From IMG/VR virus record IMGVR_UViG_3300020152_000029, positions 1-47,110 of that record: a DNA stretch of 47,110 nt. One strand, given 5' to 3'. The position numbers and the translations under genes were made by a program. This stretch comes from a virus. This document shows positions 1 to 33,147 of this stretch, piece by piece (position 1 is the stretch's first letter; the number at the start of each line of letters is the position of its first letter). Under the pieces are notes generated by a model that was given only the letters and a program-made list of their open reading frames with translations, was not told the DNA's origin and made no database searches.

Positions 1-3000
1 TGGCTTCACCCACCGCCTTCAGCATCACATCGCCGGATTCGTGACCCATGTTGTCGTTGACCCACTTCAGGGAATCGACATCCACGCTTACCTGAACAGG
101 CAGCTTTTCAGATTCGTCATAGGCGCGGCGGTTGCCGAGACCGGTCAAGTCATCGACCAGCAGCGCCTTGCGCATTTCCTCGGAAGACATCTGCTCGACA
201 CGCTTGCGCTGTTCGGTATTGGTGCGGCGGTCTGGTTCTGGAGCAGGATTTGTCAGTCCACGAATAGCATTATTCGCGGCAGCGTCATCCAGATCCATGT
301 AGTAGTAGTCTTCAACGGCCTCGTCAATCTGTGCCTCAGTAACGCCGGCCTTCACTGCCTGCGTGATTAGCTCACGGTCCAGACGGTCATACTTGTTGGC
401 GATTGCCATTTCCGGGTGGTCAATGGCGTTGTTGGCCATGAAGAATCCATACGAGAAACCCTCGGGCGTCGCGCTGCGTGCGTTCTTGGTTGCCAGACTC
501 TTGCCGCCGTACTTCTGGTGCATCTTGCTGCCCTCGGTAGGCTCAACCGGGGCAATAGGCAGGTCGGCATTGAATCGGCCCCACAGCAAGGTTTTCTTGG
601 TGTACGGGTCGCCAATATGATTCGGGTCGAATGACAGGCGCCATGGTGGCAAACTGCCCAATTCCTCGATACGGCCAACAGGGTTTTCAATCGCCCAGAT
701 GGCGGGCTTGAAGTGTTCAATGGTGGCCTGCGTCATGTGGACCAGCTTCACGCTGGCCGCGGTCCTGCCGTCCTTGTCCTTGGCCTTGAAGTGCCGGGCA
801 CCGCTTACCGCGAAGTCAGTACATGGGCATGCTGCGAGAATGGCATAGACATCATTGCCATCGAAGTGGCCGAACAGATCAGCGAAGTAGTCATGGCTGA
901 AGTTGTTGATGTCACCGATGTTGATTTCCTCACCGTTGACCTCGTTCATTTCCTCGGACTGGATATCAAAGCGATACACCTGATAACCAGCCTCTTCCCA
1001 AGGTTGTGACCACTTGCCGGTCAGGTCGAACAGCGACAGCACGATACGGTCACTATTGGCGCTGCGGCTCTTATCGTCCTTGCCCTGGGCCTTGGCATGC
1101 GCCTTCCACTCGGCAATGCGCGCCTTGGCTTCTTCCACGGTCATCCAGCCGTGGTCTTTGTGGTAGACCTTTACCTTGTCATTGAGGCGAACAATGTCGT
1201 TCTTGGCCGGCGCGTCGAACAGGTGGTGAACCTGCTCTCCACCCTCGAACATCGATTCGTGAGCCGCTTTGAACTCATTGACGATCTGACCTAGTTCGCG
1301 GTCATCAACGCCTAGGTCGGCATGCTCTGGGGCAGTGCTTTCCTTGGCTTTTATTGACTTGTTAATGCCTGCCAGATGCTCTTGAATAGGCACTGCCTCA
1401 TACTTGGCAGTATTGAGCGCATCCACCTTCTTCCGGTCGAAGGTTTCCATGACGACTTCGCCGGTTTCTTTGTTACTGATAACCCAACTGGATGAAGGCT
1501 TTACTTCTGAAGTAGGCTGACTGAACAGGTCACGCGCCCCACGCGCCGCGGCCTGATCAGCTGGCCGGTCACTGCCGGTCAGTACAAAATCATTAACTTG
1601 GGAATCTGCCTCGGCCTTCTTGCTTGCAGTCTCATCAGCCTTGCGCTGATCGGCCTTGGCTTGGTCGCGTGCGGCTAGGTCTTGTTGGCTTTGGGCCGAG
1701 AGGGTAAGTTCATCGCCTGCTGTCTGGACAGGAGGCGCACGAGTTTGAGGCGGCGTTCCTTCGGCATTGCCGCTATCTTCTGCATTGCCGGTGTCTGCAC
1801 CAGTTCCTTGGCTTTCGGCTGCAATTTCGATCTCTTCATTGAGTACCCTCGTGAGCTCTCTTTCAATTTCCGCCTGTGTCTTGCCGGCATTGGCGTCTGC
1901 TACCGTTACGTCTACCTGAGTAACAAACTCTGAACCGAAAATTCGGGTGGCTTCAGTGATGGCCAGATCAAGCGCAGCTTGCTCTTCATCGCTGAGCTCG
2001 TCGTACTCTGCATAATAAGCCTCTGACTTAGCCTGAGCAATGTTTTCAGTGCCTTCTGGGGTGTAGACATCAAACCCGCCCATAGCATCGGATAATGTGT
2101 CTCCGAATGCCGCAACCGTATCACCTACTGGATATCCAAGCTCCAGCAGCTCTTCGCGCATGGTATCCAGGTCTTTGCTGTTCGCCGAATTGTTGAAGCT
2201 GCGCATGATGCCGGAGCCGAATGACTTCATATCCTGCGGATCCAGACCCCATTCTTTCTTGGCCTGATCGAGATTGAGACCGCCGAGTTTGGCCATCGCA
2301 ACCAGAACATCATCCTTGGCGGTATTTACGCGTTTGTTCGCCTGAGCGCGTTCCTTGGCCAGACGACTTCGATTTTCCTTCGCCGCAAGCGCTTCCGGTG
2401 TATTGGTGGCCGCGTCCTGCAGTTGTGTCAACAAGTCATACAAAGACTCGTCACGCTTGAACATATTGGCCCAAGTCTTGAACTTGGATGCGCTGATGGG
2501 CTGACCGTCCATGAGCTTCTTGGCAGCGGCCAATGCGGCATCAAATGTACGTTCCTTGCCAAGCTGTGCAGCTGCGGCGCGACGTTTAACCAATGCCTCT
2601 ACGGTAGGGCGAAGGTCAAGCGATGGTGTTGGCGGAGAATCAGACTCGACAACAGGCTGCAAGAATGCTTTCTCGTCCTGCAGCATTTCCTTGAAGCGCG
2701 GCATCGGCACCGGCACAACACCACCCATGCCCTTCCAGTTCTTGTCGTAATTGCTTCGATACGCGGATTCAGCCTCTTCCTGGCTGGCATAGCCGATATA
2801 CACCTTTGGCTCATCGAACTGACCGGTAGCGGGATCGATCTGGTTCACCACGTAAACATCGCCGTCATAGTCTTCTGCTGTACCGGGCTTCACATTGACA
2901 TCGATATGTTCCTTGTCGGGTGCGCGAGCCTTCACGCCTTTGACATAGCCGTAGTGGCCATTCATCGTGCGCGACCATTCCTTGCCGGACTTATCCTTAC

Positions 3001-4432
3001 CAGAGCGGGTGCTGCCGTCCGGGTTCTCTACACTGATATTCAGACCGCCAACCTTGGCGCGGCCTACCTTGTAGTTACCTGCTTCCTTCTGGGCTGGCGT
3101 CGGTTCAGGAAGATCGTTCTGTGGAGATGTGGCGGCTTCATGCGCACCAGCTTCTAATGCATCGTTGGTGGAGTCTCCCGTTCCAGCAATCTGATTTTCC
3201 TCGCTGCCAGCTGCAGATGGTCCGGTAGAACCCTGACTTCCCCTGTCGGCGTCACTAGGGAGTAAAACGCTATCTCCTGTGCTTCTTGCAGGCTGATCAG
3301 CTTCAAGTCCACTGGTTTCTGTAGCCACTGCGGCAGGCTGTCCAGTTGTGCTGACATCTTGTTCCCCTCTCTTAATGCCGGCCGCTGCCTTGCGCGCTCC
3401 AATTTCTGCGTCCAGGGACTCGGTAAGAATCTCGAATTCGGTTTTTGGTGGAGCGCCGGTTGCTGTGGCTTGTTGAAGCAGTGCATCCTGATCAACAGCG
3501 GTAGCTGGCGCAGGTAGGTCGGCTGGCTGCGCTTGTTCCTCTGCCCTGCCGCGGAATGCACCGCCAGCGAATCCGCCCATGACTCCGCCAGTCAAGAGAC
3601 CCATGGCCGCGGCATTGTCTACTCCATCGAACATGGGGCGGTCCAGAGCGACATTGCTCCAGATCTGTTCCTGTACGGATTGCGGCAATTCCTCGAACAC
3701 ACCTTCAGATATGCCAGCTTCCAGAATGCGACGGCCAACGCCCTTCTTTGCCGCCTCTGCGGCTCCGCCGGCCATGATGGTATCGATATCATTGATGCCG
3801 AGTTTCTGTGCGAGCTTGCCGCCGGCTGCGCCGAGCACTGCGGTACCAACACCAGACCCTGCAGCGGCCAGGCTTTGCTTCGGAGTCAACAGACCGTCAT
3901 CGGTCTCCTGGCGGATTCCTTCAGCTGCAAGACCTGCACCCACTGCACCTTCACCAATGGCACCAGCAAGCACTGGAGACATGCCCGTAGCCGCCTTCAA
4001 GGCGCGAGCTGCCACACCCCCGGCACCCATGGCTGGCAACGATTCAACGACGGTATGAGCGATCGTGCTCGGGTTTTCTACCGCAGTCTTGACGGTATCA
4101 ATGAATCCATCAGCTTCGGCCACCTTGCGGTTGGCTTCTTTCTGTTCCGGGGAATAGTATTCATCGAGGAATTCTTTGGCCTGTTTCGGCTTGAAACCGA
4201 ACCCTTCTTCAGCCACCTTGCCGGCGACGCCACCGGTTGCTATATCTGCCAGACCTACAGCCATTTCAGGGACTGCAACGGCACCCTTCAATGCGGAGAT
4301 AGCGGTATCGCCTACGGCGCGGCGAACTACTCCGCTTTTCTCGTTATCCAGCGAGCCATCAAACGGTTTGAGTTGGGTTGTGGTGCTGACTTCAGGCGAA
4401 TCAAGCTCACCATCGAAAGGTTGAAGTGCCAA
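1..4432 (-). CDS. Giant polyvalent protein (InPase + DNA MTase-like + GGDEF-like), 3' end outside window
   Basis: The frame stays open for 1,477 codons and leaves the window without a stop, so the protein is partial. Domains in order: residues ~20-260 Gly/Ala-rich and helix-prone; ~453-586 a phage inorganic-pyrophosphatase-like (InPase) domain (GHYGYVKG at 492, EHIDVNV, FDEPKVYIGY); ~980-1020 a segment with TGEVVMETFD seen in many phage giant proteins; ~1128-1340 a cytosine-methyltransferase-like domain with ACPCTDFAVSGA (Cys1204) and IENPVGRI (~1248); from ~1420 the first half of a GGDEF-like fold, DDLTGLGNRR (1427) then DVDSLKWVNDNMGH. The start is TTG at 4432 with AGGAG 7 nt upstream. Polyvalent proteins are thought to be packaged and injected to protect or prime the incoming genome; that role is inferred here from domain make-up and from its place beside virion genes. 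Domain calls are by eye. Confidence 0.86.
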   Translation of the reverse strand, partial: MALQPFDGELDSPEVSTTTQLKPFDGSLDNEKSGVVRRAVGDTAISALKGAVAVPEMAVGLADIATGGVAGKVAEEGFGFKPKQAKEFLDEYYSPEQKEANRKVAEADGFIDTVKTAVENPSTIAHTVVESLPAMGAGGVAARALKAATGMSPVLAGAIGEGAVGAGLAAEGIRQETDDGLLTPKQSLAAAGSGVGTAVLGAAGGKLAQKLGINDIDTIMAGGAAEAAKKGVGRRILEAGISEGVFEELPQSVQEQIWSNVALDRPMFDGVDNAAAMGLLTGGVMGGFAGGAFRGRAEEQAQPADLPAPATAVDQDALLQQATATGAPPKTEFEILTESLDAEIGARKAAAGIKRGEQDVSTTGQPAAVATETSGLEADQPARSTGDSVLLPSDADRGSQGSTGPSAAGSEENQIAGTGDSTNDALEAGAHEAATSPQNDLPEPTPAQKEAGNYKVGRAKVGGLNISVENPDGSTRSGKDKSGKEWSRTMNGHYGYVKGVKARAPDKEHIDVNVKPGTAEDYDGDVYVVNQIDPATGQFDEPKVYIGYASQEEAESAYRSNYDKNWKGMGGVVPVPMPRFKEMLQDEKAFLQPVVESDSPPTPSLDLRPTVEALVKRRAAAAQLGKERTFDAALAAAKKLMDGQPISASKFKTWANMFKRDESLYDLLTQLQDAATNTPEALAAKENRSRLAKERAQANKRVNTAKDDVLVAMAKLGGLNLDQAKKEWGLDPQDMKSFGSGIMRSFNNSANSKDLDTMREELLELGYPVGDTVAAFGDTLSDAMGGFDVYTPEGTENIAQAKSEAYYAEYDELSDEEQAALDLAITEATRIFGSEFVTQVDVTVADANAGKTQAEIERELTRVLNEEIEIAAESQGTGADTGNAEDSGNAEGTPPQTRAPPVQTAGDELTLSAQSQQDLAARDQAKADQRKADETASKKAEADSQVNDFVLTGSDRPADQAAARGARDLFSQPTSEVKPSSSWVISNKETGEVVMETFDRKKVDALNTAKYEAVPIQEHLAGINKSIKAKESTAPEHADLGVDDRELGQIVNEFKAAHESMFEGGEQVHHLFDAPAKNDIVRLNDKVKVYHKDHGWMTVEEAKARIAEWKAHAKAQGKDDKSRSANSDRIVLSLFDLTGKWSQPWEEAGYQVYRFDIQSEEMNEVNGEEINIGDINNFSHDYFADLFGHFDGNDVYAILAACPCTDFAVSGARHFKAKDKDGRTAASVKLVHMTQATIEHFKPAIWAIENPVGRIEELGSLPPWRLSFDPNHIGDPYTKKTLLWGRFNADLPIAPVEPTEGSKMHQKYGGKSLATKNARSATPEGFSYGFFMANNAIDHPEMAIANKYDRLDRELITQAVKAGVTEAQIDEAVEDYYYMDLDDAAANNAIRGLTNPAPEPDRRTNTEQRKRVEQMSSEEMRKALLVDDLTGLGNRRAYDESEKLPVQVSVDVDSLKWVNDNMGHESGDVMLKAVGEA

Positions 4433-4456
4433 AATCTGTCTCCTAAAGAGAAAGCG

Positions 4457-4470
4457 ACGCCTCACGGCGT
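4457..4470 (-). repeat. Leader hairpin, copy 1 (GTGA loop)
   Basis: On the minus strand ACGCC-GTGA-GGCGT forms a 5-bp stem with a GNRA-type loop, 25 nt upstream of the polyvalent gene start and followed by CTTTCTCTTTAGGAG. It is one of five related intergenic hairpins in the late region. The spacing and the following pyrimidine-plus-SD stretch closely match the copy at 11660-11674. Confidence 0.55.
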
Positions 4471-26970: not shown

Positions 26971-27807
26971 TCAATCCCCGCAAAAACATTCAATAGATTC
27001 GTCGGAAAACATATCGGCCTGATCCTGGGTAAAGCTCATCATGTCTTGGTAACTAGGGCGGTCCTGTCTGAACCTTGCGCCTTGGCCTGTGGCCTGCCCG
27101 GATGACTGCACAAGTGTTTCCATCCTTGCCCACCACACGGCACGTTCTGGCTTCTCTGCAATCAGCGATACAACTTGATTGCCGCCCTTCAGAAAGCACA
27201 GGTCACAGTTACCGTGCATGGTCTTGCCATTGATATTTGGAAGCCGTAAATCGAAGGCTTGGGATTTCCAGAACTGGCCGACATGGCTGGCGGTTATGCC
27301 GGACTCAGCAAGCGGAGAACGCTTCTCTTCGTGCTTGCCGTAATCTTGATTCTTCAGCTTGGCTACACGTCGCGGCTCGTCGGCTCTGATGCCAAGGAAT
27401 GATTGCCACTCTGTCCAACCCAATGACTTCAGATAGCGATGGATTGACCGCACCTTCATTTCTACGGTACAGAAGCGGCTTACGGGGTTTGGAAGGAACT
27501 GCCGTTTACGTATGAGTGCCTCAAATGGCTCGCCGTTACGGCTAGCTGTCGTGTAATCTACGACCTCAAATTTCTGCTCGCTGTCGCGGTACTCAATCCA
27601 TGCTATAGGCACGTCCCACCGGGTTGAGCATTCCTGCACAAAATCCAGCGTGGCTTCCTCTTCCTTGCCGGTATTGGCAAAGCAGACAATGGCCTCGTCA
27701 GGCAGTCCGCCATTCGCCTCAAGTACCTGATGCAGCATGTAGGCACTCGTCCTGCCACCGGAGAAGCTGATGCAAGTTGGTTCGGTGATGAGGTATGTCG
27801 ACCTCAT
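26971..27807 (-). CDS. PAPS-reductase/DndC-like sulfur or ATP-pyrophosphatase protein
   Basis: 278 aa from ATG 27807, which overlaps the DUF1367-like gene by ATGA. The PP-loop is SFSGGRTSAYMLHQ (residues ~14-27), followed by IVCFANTGKEEEATLDFV, WIEYRD, and a C-terminal HGNCDLCFLKGG pair of cysteines, the hallmarks of phage PAPS-reductase-like proteins. Substrates may be a sulfur carrier (DNA or tRNA thiolation, phosphorothioation) or a nucleotide. It is unclear which. In phages the class is often linked to DNA modification or to host metabolism; no DndDE partner is seen here. Confidence 0.83.
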   Translation of the reverse strand: MRSTYLITEPTCISFSGGRTSAYMLHQVLEANGGLPDEAIVCFANTGKEEEATLDFVQECSTRWDVPIAWIEYRDSEQKFEVVDYTTASRNGEPFEALIRKRQFLPNPVSRFCTVEMKVRSIHRYLKSLGWTEWQSFLGIRADEPRRVAKLKNQDYGKHEEKRSPLAESGITASHVGQFWKSQAFDLRLPNINGKTMHGNCDLCFLKGGNQVVSLIAEKPERAVWWARMETLVQSSGQATGQGARFRQDRPSYQDMMSFTQDQADMFSDESIECFCGD

Positions 27808-28325
27808 TCGCCAAAACTCCCGAGAATCGTCTCCATCATTTCCGAGCGCATGGCTTCGTCCAGGTGCGCCCACAGGGTTTTTTGTGCATGCTCAGTGCGC
27901 AGGAACTGAATCATGTCGCTATGCAGCTGTTCCATTCCGCCCTGTTCCAGCTGTCCGTAGCTCATGGACTTGGCTACCGGGATAACGCCGCCCCTTGGAC
28001 CAGGGAACCAGTCAACGAAACCGGCGCCGATCTTCAGCCAGATGCGGAATGCCTCGAAGTTATCGAATTTCTCCTGGGCCTCGAACAGCTGCTGCTCCAT
28101 CGCCATGTGCTTGCGGTGATACCAGCCGAGCCGCTCCTGATGGGTCTTGATCTCCACCATTTCGCCGGGCTCGAGCTTGAACAGACGGTTCATGAAGCGA
28201 CGCCATTTCTTTTGCGCACTCTCGCCCAAGCCATCGATATGGCCGAATAGAACACGGCGTGCAGCTTCCTTCTCCTGCTCGGAAACGGCGATGTCATGCT
28301 TGCGGACGAGATTGATTTCAGCCAT
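27804..28325 (-). CDS. DUF1367-like phage protein
   Basis: 173 aa from ATG 28325, which overlaps the upstream stop (TAATG). It shows the pattern expected of DUF1367 phage proteins: INLVRKHDIAVSEQEK, a helical middle (KKWRRFMNRLFKL; QERLGWYHRKHMAMEQQLFEAQE with the conserved HRK) and a C-terminal strand-helix region with SMSYGQLEQGGMEQLHSDMIQFL. The function is unknown; it recurs in phage recombination and Nin-type regions. Confidence is moderate because the match is by recall of short blocks only. Confidence 0.75.
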   Translation of the reverse strand: MAEINLVRKHDIAVSEQEKEAARRVLFGHIDGLGESAQKKWRRFMNRLFKLEPGEMVEIKTHQERLGWYHRKHMAMEQQLFEAQEKFDNFEAFRIWLKIGAGFVDWFPGPRGGVIPVAKSMSYGQLEQGGMEQLHSDMIQFLRTEHAQKTLWAHLDEAMRSEMMETILGSFGE

Positions 28326-30731: not shown

Positions 30732-30971
30732 CTAGTTGCTCTTCAACTCTTCCTGATCCACGTAACGCTCCGGATAGAGAATTTCCAGTTCGGAGATATC
30801 CCCACCCTTTTCCTTGTAGAACCTGGAGAGCTTTTCTGCGACATCAGGGGTTACCCCCTGTTTACGTCGCTCGATACGTGAGAGGTTTCCGGGATCGAGT
30901 CCAACCGGCACGGCAACATCATGCAAAGTGAACTTGAGCTTTTTCCTAACGATTTGGAGAGGTGTAGCCAT
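30732..30971 (-). CDS. cro: Cro-type helix-turn-helix repressor
   Basis: 79 aa. TPLQIVRKKLKFTLHDVAVPVGLDPGNLSRIERRKQG is a classical HTH of the XRE family (recognition helix PGNLSRIERR), followed by a helical tail with DVAEKLSRFYKEKGGD. The recognition helix shares NLSR(I/F)ER with CI, and the genes diverge. No ribosome site is seen: the -10 (30978-30983) places the start of transcription at or next to this ATG, so the message may be leaderless. The identification as Cro rests on small size, divergent position and leftward operon. Confidence 0.85.
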   Translation of the reverse strand: MATPLQIVRKKLKFTLHDVAVPVGLDPGNLSRIERRKQGVTPDVAEKLSRFYKEKGGDISELEILYPERYVDQEELKSN

Positions 30972-30977
30972 GCGCCG

Positions 30978-31007
30978 ATTATTGCGCACCACGCAATGCG
31001 CAGTCAA
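30978..31007 (-). promoter_or_regulatory. Leftward early promoter for cro
   Basis: Minus strand TTGACT (31007-31002) and AATAAT (30983-30978) separated by 18 nt. The operator half-sites lie between them, and the predicted start coincides with the cro ATG at 30971. Confidence 0.7.
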
Positions 31008-31044
31008 GAAATTTTTGCGCGTGGCGCTTTGCGTGACGTGCAAA
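30981..31044. promoter_or_regulatory. Operator cluster in the cro-cI intergenic region
   Basis: Two sites fit TTGCG-N5-(C/T)GCAA: 30982-30996 (TTGCGCACCACGCAA) and 31029-31043 (TTGCGTGACGTGCAA), and a weaker third, TTGCGCGTGGCGCTT, lies at 31015-31029. The first sits between the -35 and -10 of the cro promoter. The same sequence type appears twice at the early promoter near 33.1 kb. They are the probable CI/Cro sites. Confidence 0.75.
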
Positions 31045-31064
31045 CCAACCGGAAAATGAGTACC

Positions 31065-31712
31065 ATGTATAAACACATGGGGGAAGTCATCAGGGCACTG
31101 CGCTCGCGGGCTAAATTAAGCCTGCAGGCACTGGCTAACGAAGTGGAAAATTATGATGCCGGGAACCTGTCACGCTTCGAGCGTGGCGCTCAGCAGATAG
31201 AACCTGAGAAACTTGCACAACTAGCCAAAGCGCTAGGTAGACGCATGTCCGAACTGTATGCAATGTTGGAAGAAGACCCGCGTGTAAGCCGGGCGAATAC
31301 AGAAGCAGGGCCGTCGATTAAAGGGGAGTATCCGTTGATATCTTGGGTGCAAGCAGGCTCATGGAATTCTATTTCCGATGAGTTCAGTCCGGGTGATGCT
31401 GAATCATATTATGCAGCGCCAAGGAAATGCGGTCCGCGTACTTTTTTATTGCGCGTTCGAGGCCGTAGCATGGAGCCGAAGTACAGTGACGGGGATCTGA
31501 TTTTTGTAGACCCTGCAGTGCAGTATCAGCATGGCAGCAATGTCATCGTAAAGCTACCGGACGAAGAAGAAGGTACTTTCAAGAGGCTTGTCATTGAAGG
31601 TAGCAAGATATGGCTGGAGCCGCTGAACCCTGACTGGCCAGAAAAAGCTATTCAACTATCTGAAGACGCTGTTATTGTTGGCGTCGTGATAGGTAAATGG
31701 GTACCGGATTGA
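31065..31712 (+). CDS. cI: CI-type repressor with S24 self-cleavage domain
   Basis: About 215 aa. N-terminal HTH of the XRE type (GEVIRALRSRAKLSLQALANEVENYDAGNLSRFERG). The C-terminal part is a LexA/S24 peptidase: a cleavage-region GEYPLISWVQAGSW, catalytic Ser in RGRSMEPKYSDGDLIFVDP, and Lys in NVIVKLPDEEEGTFKRL. This is a temperate-phage repressor inactivated by RecA-stimulated self-cleavage. The start is uncertain: ATGs at 31056, 31065 and 31077 are all in frame, and none has a good ribosome site, so the message may be leaderless or weakly translated. The stop is 1 nt before the pseudopilin gene. Confidence 0.92.
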   Translation: MYKHMGEVIRALRSRAKLSLQALANEVENYDAGNLSRFERGAQQIEPEKLAQLAKALGRRMSELYAMLEEDPRVSRANTEAGPSIKGEYPLISWVQAGSWNSISDEFSPGDAESYYAAPRKCGPRTFLLRVRGRSMEPKYSDGDLIFVDPAVQYQHGSNVIVKLPDEEEGTFKRLVIEGSKIWLEPLNPDWPEKAIQLSEDAVIVGVVIGKWVPD

Positions 31713-31713
31713 T

Positions 31714-32823
31714 ATGCGGCCACAGGGCTTTACCCTTGTCGAAATGTCTGTGGTGCTCGTCATTGCAGGCCTTGTGCTCGCAGCGGTAATGACCGCCGGC
31801 ACTGCCCAGATCGCTCAGACAAGAATAATCACCACAAAGTCCAAGGAAGAGGCTGTAAGAACAGCCTTGATCACCTTCATCGCCAGAAATAACCGTCTAC
31901 CCTGCCCTGCCGTACCTACCTTGGAACCGGATGATGACGGCTACGGAGTCGCAGCAGATTCACCTGGTTGCACGAATGTTCCAAGTTACGGAGCTGGCGC
32001 CGATATTGTTTATACCGGCGTTCTACCTTGGTCTTCTCTTGGGCTATCGAGTGAGTCGGCATCGGATGGCTATTACAACCGCTTCACATACATGGTTTCT
32101 GGGACTGCGACCGAGACCAATTCAATTACCGTGTCCGGCTTGGCCGGAAACATAACGATACACACTGATACCCCTGCTCTGCCCGGCAGTCCTGCGGCTG
32201 GCAATCAGTCCAATGAATGCGCCAATGGCCTGACAGTTAACCCATGCGCGGCAGCTGCTGCGATCATATCTCATGGAGCAAATGGCAACGGGGCATATAC
32301 AACAGAGGGCAAAAGGATAGACCTTCCGGGTGGAAATGCAGAATCAGAAAACACTGATGGCGATACCGCTCTGGTCATAAAGGATTTCGTCACTGATAGT
32401 AACGAGCCATACGATGACATCGTGCTGGCCATGCCGGCGTCAGAGCTGCTTGCGCCTTTGACATTTAACGGATCCATCAAGGACTACAACGCCAAGCTGC
32501 AGGATGATTTCAGGAAGATACTTGGCGTCGTAGTTACAGATGCAAGAGTAAAGCGCACCGGCTCGATACCCGAAGACCGTTCTTACCCGCTCCCGTTCGA
32601 CATCAACAGTTTGGGCCTGCAACCAGAATCGTCAATTGACCCATGGGGCACACCTTATGAGTACGACAGAGTGACGGCATCGATCGAAGCCGGTACCACC
32701 AATGTTGGCGCCTATACTGTTACGTCTTATGGTCCCGATAAAGCGGGAGGCGGCGGTGATGATATCGTGCTGACAGTGACGGTCAGCGAACTTAAATCTT
32801 ATTTTCTCAACTACGGATGGTGA
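31714..32823 (+). CDS. Type IV pilin-like pseudopilin encoded by the phage
   Basis: 369 aa. The N-terminus has a class III leader: RPQG/FTLVEM with Gly(-1), Phe(+1) and Glu(+5), followed by a 25-residue hydrophobic helix (SVVLVIAGLVLAAVMTAGTA). The large ectodomain has a Cys pair (PCPAVP..DSPGC) and ends with SSIDPWGTPYEYDRV and SYGPDKAGGGGDDIVLTVTV, reminiscent of the WGxPY and acidic Ca-binding tail of GspG-type major pseudopilins. A host prepilin peptidase would process it. It starts 1 nt after cI, so it is probably expressed in lysogens, and may alter host pili or secretion to block other phages. This role is inferred. Confidence 0.88.
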   Translation: MRPQGFTLVEMSVVLVIAGLVLAAVMTAGTAQIAQTRIITTKSKEEAVRTALITFIARNNRLPCPAVPTLEPDDDGYGVAADSPGCTNVPSYGAGADIVYTGVLPWSSLGLSSESASDGYYNRFTYMVSGTATETNSITVSGLAGNITIHTDTPALPGSPAAGNQSNECANGLTVNPCAAAAAIISHGANGNGAYTTEGKRIDLPGGNAESENTDGDTALVIKDFVTDSNEPYDDIVLAMPASELLAPLTFNGSIKDYNAKLQDDFRKILGVVVTDARVKRTGSIPEDRSYPLPFDINSLGLQPESSIDPWGTPYEYDRVTASIEAGTTNVGAYTVTSYGPDKAGGGGDDIVLTVTVSELKSYFLNYGW

Positions 32824-33053
32824 ATATGCATACTCAACTTCAATCCAGTAGCACTGTTATGGACAAGCTCATCATCGGCGCCCCATTGATGCCGCCAATC
32901 GTTGCTGTCTTAATGTTCATAGGCATTCTCTCTCCTGTCACCTGGAGCGTCAGCGGATATATCTATACAGTGTTCGCGGTTTCGGTAGCAATAAGCGCGG
33001 TCGCCGCATACTGCATTGTCTCGTTTATCGAGAACGTCAAAGAACAAATGTAG
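32817..33053 (+). CDS. Two-TM membrane protein in the lysogeny unit
   Basis: About 78 aa (75 if ATG 32826 is used). Two hydrophobic segments: PLMPPIVAVLMFIGILSPVTW and IYTVFAVSVAISAVAAYCIVSF, with a short loop and a charged tail (IENVKEQM). It overlaps the end of the pseudopilin gene by 7 nt, so it is translated from the same message, and a terminator lies 19 nt after its stop. It might be an inner-membrane partner of the pseudopilin or a small exclusion protein. No family is recognised. Confidence 0.75.
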   Translation: MVNMHTQLQSSSTVMDKLIIGAPLMPPIVAVLMFIGILSPVTWSVSGYIYTVFAVSVAISAVAAYCIVSFIENVKEQM

Positions 33054-33071
33054 TATCACACGCACGACTCC

Positions 33072-33097
33072 AAACCCGCTTCTGCGGGTTTTTCTTC
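33072..33097 (+). terminator. Terminator closing the cI-pseudopilin unit
   Basis: AAACCCGC-TTCT-GCGGGTTT, an 8-bp perfect stem, followed by TTCTTC within a T-rich run. It separates the lysogen-expressed unit from the early promoter that begins 17 nt later. Confidence 0.9.
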
Positions 33098-33107
33098 GCC
33101 CTTCATT

Positions 33108-33147
33108 TTGCGCTTGACGCAATTATATATATTGCGTAGGATGCAAT
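33108..33147 (+). promoter_or_regulatory. Rightward early promoter under two repressor-type operators
   Basis: TTGACG (33114-33119), 17-nt spacer, TAGGAT (33137-33142). Two sites matching TTGCG-N5-(C/T)GCAA overlap it: 33108-33122 over the -35 and 33132-33146 over the -10. A 21-bp perfect palindrome ACGCAAT-TATATAT-ATTGCGT (33117-33137) lies between. This is the likely OL/PL-like counterpart to the cro-cI operators. Confidence 0.8.

What the first reader, a model, noticed from the sequence alone, without database searches (positions are those of the whole stretch)
31714..32823. A type IV pseudopilin expressed from the repressor transcript
Seen: RPQG/FTLVEM leader, 25-residue hydrophobic helix, Cys pair, WGTPYEY and an acidic GGGGDDI tail like GspG-type Ca sites, starting 1 nt after cI. 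Known: type IV pili are common phage receptors, and some phages block pili. Inference: lysogens make a phage pilin that could dilute, cap or jam host pili or secretion pseudopili and so exclude other phages or change adhesion.
Basis: partly seen in the sequence, partly recalled or inferred. Interest (0 to 1): 0.87.

Follow-up and report, generated by a model that had tools for sequence, protein, structure and literature searches.

The report
Phage pilin in lysogeny operon
A bacterial virus that can lie dormant carries, right behind the gene that keeps it dormant, a copy of a bacterial surface-fibre (pilus) subunit, and a second, divergent virus has the same arrangement; this suggests that such viruses alter their host's pili while silent, probably to keep other viruses out.

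Summary
ORF 31714-32823 (369 aa) begins 1 nt after the cI stop, has a class III prepilin leader (MRPQG/FTLVE) and is a real, conserved pilin. It is a tandem: pilin helix plus two related GspG-like modules. It sits inside the immunity region: four exact 15-bp operator-like sites, found nowhere else in the window, flank cI-pilin-ORF78, and an intrinsic terminator closes the unit before the PL-like promoter. This is the slot of rexAB in lambda. A second, divergent phage (L059) has the same order (repressor, pilin at 44% identity, terminator, operators, RecE) with different operators; the proteins are under purifying selection. Two more phage contigs carry family members elsewhere; one has a related 2-TM partner gene. 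All four fall in a supported clade with a minor pilin encoded inside MSHA-like type IV pilus loci of Gammaproteobacteria (GTDB sense). F116, among the nearest annotated terminase relatives, adsorbs to type IV pili; F116 and BcepMigl lack the gene at this place. Most likely: a lysogen-expressed minor-pilin mimic that enters or poisons an MSHA/T4P machine and limits superinfection. Identity and position are shown; function is inferred. New variant of a known kind.

The parts
30982..30996 (.). Operator-like site TTGCGCACCACGCAA (OR side)
   Evidence: Exact match of TTGCGYNNNRYGCAA; only four in the window
31029..31043 (.). Operator-like site TTGCGTGACGTGCAA (OR side)
31056..31712 (+). cI-type repressor (HTH + S24 peptidase); start inferred, the longest ORF begins at 30921
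   Evidence: Peptidase_S24 1.7e-25; phrog_4 transcriptional repressor 5e-45
31714..32823 (+). Two-module type IV pilin, 369 aa, leader MRPQG/FTLVE
32817..33053 (+). ORF78 (start 32817 or 32826), small membrane protein overlapping the pilin stop; related 2-TM ORF behind the pilin of L067
33072..33091 (+). Intrinsic terminator: AAACCCGC-TTCT-GCGGGTTT followed by TTCTT
33108..33122 (.). Operator-like site TTGCGCTTGACGCAA (OL side)
33114..33142 (+). PL-like promoter TTGACG-17-TAGGAT of the rightward early genes
33132..33146 (.). Operator-like site TTGCGTAGGATGCAA (OL side)
30732..31076 (-). Divergent Cro-like regulator; the ORF as listed is longer than the likely gene, whose start is probably near 30972
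   Evidence: phrog_7241 transcriptional regulator 4e-4; start inferred

Best explanation
SHOWN: the gene encodes a type IV pilin with a class III leader and two GspG-like modules in tandem, homologous to a minor pilin encoded within MSHA-like type IV pilus loci; it lies directly behind cI, between two pairs of operator-like sites, in a unit closed by an intrinsic terminator, and a second phage has the same arrangement. INFERRED: in the lysogen it is translated from the cI (PRM-like) transcript at a low, minor-pilin-like level, coupled to cI translation. Host prepilin peptidase cleaves after G5, and the subunit enters the inner-membrane pool used by the host's MSHA-like/T4a pilus machine. There it takes the place of, or complexes wrongly with, the cognate minor pilins that prime or cap the filament, so that pili are fewer, shorter, less dynamic or carry another tip. 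Since type IV pili are common phage receptors (for F116, among the nearest annotated terminase relatives, for example), the main benefit is probably superinfection exclusion, with altered adhesion as a side effect. ORF78, which has a related partner gene behind the pilin in another phage, may hold or deliver the pilin in the membrane.
For: Pilin identity. Lysogeny operon anatomy: 1-nt spacing; operators at 30982, 31029, 33108, 33132 only; terminator 33072-33091; promoter TTGACG-17-TAGGAT at 33114-33142 beyond it. Same order in the divergent phage L059 with other operators and a terminator right after the pilin. Protein-level purifying selection. Phage copies fall in a clade (95/89) with chromosomal two-module pilins, of which the three loci read in full lie in pilus loci with MshEN ATPase, T2SSF or secretin genes. 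Tandem modules: hhalign 96.8%, 2.6e-10, AF2 models, top Foldseek hit GspG, prob 0.99 for the homologue. Partner 2-TM ORF in L067, 2 of 3000 block shuffles as good. F116 uses T4P (PMC6024842, PMC12838167); TerL 55.7% identical to F116. Precedent that the minor:major pilin ratio sets pilus dynamics and that T2SS minor pilins can serve a T4aP: PMC13249403. Precedent for prophages blocking T4P: PMC11656802.
Against: No expression or phenotype data. The host is unknown, so whether it has an MSHA-like locus or uses pili as receptor is untested. In L067 the pilin follows a virion gene by 18 nt and no repressor is seen nearby, so late expression is possible there; that phage's lifestyle is unknown. 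L118's copy stands among late genes. The related phage JC1 (Bcep22-like) uses LPS (PMC9144972). L059 lacks the 2-TM partner. AF2 confidence is moderate (pLDDT 66-68).
Confidence: 0.5

Rival explanations
1. Lysogenic conversion for adhesion: the subunit is assembled as a functional minor or tip pilin and gives the lysogen a new binding specificity (surface, particle, partner cell), without exclusion of phages as the selected effect.
For: E5 and the whole helix are kept, as in assembling pilins; the globular part diverges far more than the N-terminus; chromosomal relatives are parts of working-looking pilus loci.
Against: Nothing in the sequence shows a binding function; the rex-like slot is more often linked with exclusion (own knowledge).
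Confidence: 0.25
2. Dominant-negative jamming: the subunit is processed but not assembled; its second module or ORF78 stalls the assembly platform or the alignment complex.
For: Oversized two-module subunit; a membrane partner gene follows it in two phages.
Against: Chromosomal homologues with the same two modules sit in intact-looking pilus loci and so are presumably assembly-competent; L059 has no partner.
Confidence: 0.12
3. Passenger moron: a pilin gene captured from a host with no benefit to the phage.
For: Absent from related F116 and BcepMigl at the corresponding place; lower third-position GC than most phage genes.
Against: Third-position divergence with protein conservation between two phages; same slot in two phages with different operators; four phage contigs.
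Confidence: 0.08
4. A lytic-phase role: the pilin is made late, for instance as a virion-associated or lysis-related membrane protein.
For: In L067 it follows the giant virion gene by 18 nt on the same strand.
Against: In the window and L059 it is on the repressor transcript and cut off by a terminator; in the window it is also on the strand opposite to the late genes.
Confidence: 0.05

Closest known systems
Two-module minor pilins of MSHA-like type IV pilus loci of Gammaproteobacteria (GTDB sense; L071-L076, L012)
   Same: Same leader, helix, PCP...C, GhhPW..LG, SHGxNGxGA and DD motifs, same tandem architecture; one supported clade.
   Different: The loci read in full hold MshEN ATPase, T2SSF and secretin genes; the phage gene stands alone behind a repressor.
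GspG, major pseudopilin of type II secretion
   Same: GFTLVE leader; C-terminal module with DPWG and a DDI loop like the Ca site; best fold match 3g20/5o2y.
   Different: Fails the GspG equivalog cut-off (40.4 vs 88.85 bits); more than twice the size; no T2SS genes beside it.
Lambda rexA-rexB (cI operon exclusion genes)
   Same: Position: behind cI on the repressor transcript, between the two operator regions; a membrane-protein gene follows.
   Different: Pilin instead of RexA; no shared family seen; it would act at the cell surface and not by abortive infection.
Prophage T4P inhibitors Tip/Aqs1, Zip, PfsE of Pseudomonas phages
   Same: Prophage product that would act on type IV pili to limit superinfection (PMC11656802).
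   Different: Tip/Aqs1 bind the motor PilB and Zip binds PilZ (PMC11656802); PfsE is known to act on PilC (own knowledge). This one is itself a pilin.
PHROG 3433 'pilin' (moron category)
   Same: Phage-borne pilin N-terminus.
   Different: Only a weak N-terminal match (E 0.03) to a profile of 127 positions; not the same family over its length.

Membership tests
Type IV pilin superfamily (class III signal peptide) | G/FxxxE cleavage motif, E5, hydrophobic N-terminal helix | tested here: met
   MRPQG/FTLVE; N_methyl 27.3 bits vs cut-off 21.2; TIGR02532 28.3 vs 16.3.
Type IV pilin superfamily (class III signal peptide) | Long helix packed on a beta-sheet globular domain | tested here: inconclusive
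   AF2 models with long helix and two beta modules, pLDDT 66-68; GspG top Foldseek hit, prob 0.66 and 0.99, E 0.33 and 0.022.
Type IV pilin superfamily (class III signal peptide) | Processing and N-methylation by prepilin peptidase | not testable with these tools
   Needs an experiment.
GspG major pseudopilin | Score above the GspG equivalog cut-off | tested here: not met
   40.4 bits vs 88.85.
Two-module MSHA-locus minor pilin family | Groups with the chromosomal members in a tree | tested here: met
   Clade support 95/89; nearest rows L059 and L097 at 89/94.
Two-module MSHA-locus minor pilin family | Second GspG-like module with its own helix | tested here: met
   hhalign of halves 96.8%, 2.6e-10; models.
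Two-module MSHA-locus minor pilin family | Encoded inside a pilus assembly locus | tested here: not met
   The phage gene lies between cI and early genes; no assembly gene among the window ORFs inspected.
rex-like lysogeny exclusion module | Behind the repressor gene, between operator regions, own terminator | tested here: met
rex-like lysogeny exclusion module | Excludes superinfecting phages | not testable with these tools
   Needs a lysogen.
Known defence genes (PADLOC) | Match to a catalogued defence protein | tested here: not met
   No match for P0001 or ORF78 at E <= 1.
Prophage T4P inhibitors (Tip/Aqs1, Zip, PfsE) | Sequence kinship with these proteins | not tested
   Their sequences were not fetched; the prepilin architecture makes kinship unlikely (inference).

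The most novel reading that the evidence does not exclude
Temperate phages carry, as a transferable lysogeny cassette, a two-module minor-pilin mimic (with or without a 2-TM partner) that replaces the host's own minor pilin in an MSHA/T4 pilus and re-sets its tip or dynamics: superinfection exclusion by subunit substitution instead of by an inhibitor of the motor.
Probability: 0.35. Interest if true: 0.82.

Novelty: new variant of a known kind. Interest (0 to 1): 0.66.

Why it matters
Prophages are known to shut type IV pili by small proteins that bind the motor or its partners. A phage that makes a pilin subunit itself, in the repressor operon and in at least two phages with different operators, would be another route: changing the filament from inside. 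It would also link lysogeny directly with pilus-dependent traits (attachment, twitching, DNA uptake), and it gives a defined target machine to test, the MSHA-like pilus.

Tried and rejected
Close relatives among annotated phages and plasmids: none (tblastn). GspG membership: rejected by score. Catalogued defence protein: none. Structured RNA in the region: no Rfam match. A first pattern for the operators (ACGCAA-N9-TTGCGT) was no better than chance over the window with 3 mismatches and was replaced by the 15-bp pattern TTGCGYNNNRYGCAA, which was read off the immunity region itself; what counts is its absence elsewhere, not its total. The RecE-like protein found no relatives in viral contigs; the CI query found only distant S24 repressors. 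More phage copies were sought with two further alignments and with the L067 protein and in the families of genomes G392 and G655: none beyond those listed. L002 and L062-L066 match the N-terminus only and belong to another kind of phage pseudopilin. The viral fold library gave no match. Literature searches with the terms used found no report of a phage-encoded pilin in a repressor operon, in an open-access library only.

Full report
Observation. The ORF at 31714-32823 is real and as described: ATG one nucleotide after the cI stop, leader MRPQG/FTLVEM, E at mature position 5, a hydrophobic helix, and above-cut-off matches to the prepilin N-terminal models. It has four cysteines (64, 86, 169, 178), not one pair.

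Surroundings. The window is a virus record classed as linear with an F116/BcepMigl-type terminase (about 56% identity); the giant virion gene at 2-4465 runs off the left end, so the record is incomplete, and no integrase was identified among the genes annotated here. The repressor gene (S24 peptidase and HTH domains) probably starts at 31056 and not at 30921, because operator-like sites lie at 30982 and 31029 (inference). A small regulator, Cro-like, is divergent on the minus strand. The pattern TTGCGYNNNRYGCAA occurs exactly four times in 47 kb, at 30982, 31029, 33108 and 33132, and at no other place with one mismatch. The last two overlap or adjoin a promoter, TTGACG-17-TAGGAT, that heads the rightward early genes including RecT and RecE. 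Before it stands an intrinsic terminator, 33072-33091. Hence cI, pilin and a 78-aa ORF with hydrophobic segments form one unit between two operator regions, as cI-rexA-rexB does in lambda (own knowledge).

A second phage. An alignment-based scan of viral contigs found L059: an S24 repressor gene whose N-terminal part has no HTH match in Pfam, then after 9 nt a 363-aa pilin 44% identical over the whole length, then a terminator, TTAGYCGRCTAA-like sites on both sides of the unit and a promoter-like TTGACG...TAAGAT, then early genes with RecE. Codon positions 1/2/3 of the two pilin genes agree at 57/63/31%: the proteins are under purifying selection while synonymous sites are near saturation.

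Other phage copies. L067 (the same contig as L060 and L127; L068 is a near-copy) has a 282-aa member 18 nt behind a giant virion gene, followed with an ATGA overlap by a 66-aa ORF with two hydrophobic segments. This ORF resembles ORF78 (27% over 56 residues, E 2e-4 for the single comparison; 2 of 3000 block-wise shuffles score as high), so pilin plus 2-TM partner may be a cassette. L118, a 10-kb contig of a genome in the order of G002 (G392) with portal and major head genes, has a full-length member on the strand opposite to these genes.

Family. In cellular genomes, full-length or near full-length homologues (L071-L076, L012) were found. Of the three loci read in full, L091, L093 and L094, Pfam confirms the MshEN-T2SSE ATPase and T2SSF in L091 and L093 and the secretin in L093 and L094; the pilin sits next to a small conserved periplasmic-protein gene and near classical short pilins. 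This is the layout of an MSHA-type type IV pilus. In a tree of 51 rows the two-module pilins, with all four phage proteins, are one supported group (95/89); window, L059 and the split orphan L097 group at 89/94, while L067 is a long, unsure branch. The phage rows do not form one clade in the best tree, but a single capture is not excluded.

Architecture. Comparing the two halves by profile gives 96.8% probability, 2.6e-10 for the single comparison, over helix and LPW..LG...DPWG..Y. Models (pLDDT 66 and 68) show a long N-terminal helix, a beta module, a second long helix and a second beta module. The best solved structures are GspG/PulG (prob 0.66 for the window protein, 0.99 for L059, E above 0.01 in both). 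The protein is nevertheless not GspG.

Mechanism. Shown: identity, tandem architecture, position, recurrence, selection, kinship with a pilus-locus pilin. Inferred: translation coupled to cI, hence low level; processing by the host's prepilin peptidase; entry into an MSHA-like/T4a machine as a surrogate minor pilin; reduced or altered pili; exclusion of pilus-dependent phages. Support from the literature: F116 adsorbs to type IV pili (PMC6024842, PMC12838167); prophages limit superinfection by acting on T4P (PMC11656802); the minor-to-major pilin ratio sets pilus dynamics and T2SS minor pilins can serve a T4aP (PMC13249403). Against: a Bcep22-like relative uses LPS (PMC9144972), the host is unknown, and L067 suggests late expression there.

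Comparison with related phages. In BcepMigl the repressor gene is followed directly by RecE on the same strand; in F116 the next gene beyond the repressor is on the other strand. Neither has a pilin there, so the gene behaves as a moron in this slot.

Verdict. Observation confirmed; interpretation partly supported; new variant of a known kind (prophage control of type IV pili, from the rex-like slot).

Noticed in passing
L002, L062-L066 (IMG/VR contigs up to 85 kb): A different phage pseudopilin (219-222 aa in the five read, GFTLVEM leader) follows a large repeat-rich secreted-protein gene and precedes several small membrane-protein ORFs, in similar order across contigs.
   Followed up: partly
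window 26971-27873 (-): Phosphoadenosine phosphosulfate reductase-like gene, a common phage moron (phrog_424).
   Followed up: no
L117 9507-10593 (genome G655): The nearest cellular relative of the window and L059 pilins is split over two frames and is not beside pilus assembly genes; it may be a remnant of a mobile copy, or a sequencing error.
   Followed up: partly
L071, L073, L015, L018: A conserved small periplasmic protein (LGRLFTTPxERxxLDxLR-like) and PilO-like genes next to these pilins; those scanned have no Pfam family.
   Followed up: partly
window 2-4465 (-): A giant virion gene runs off the left end of the record; the phage genome is incomplete here.
   Followed up: no
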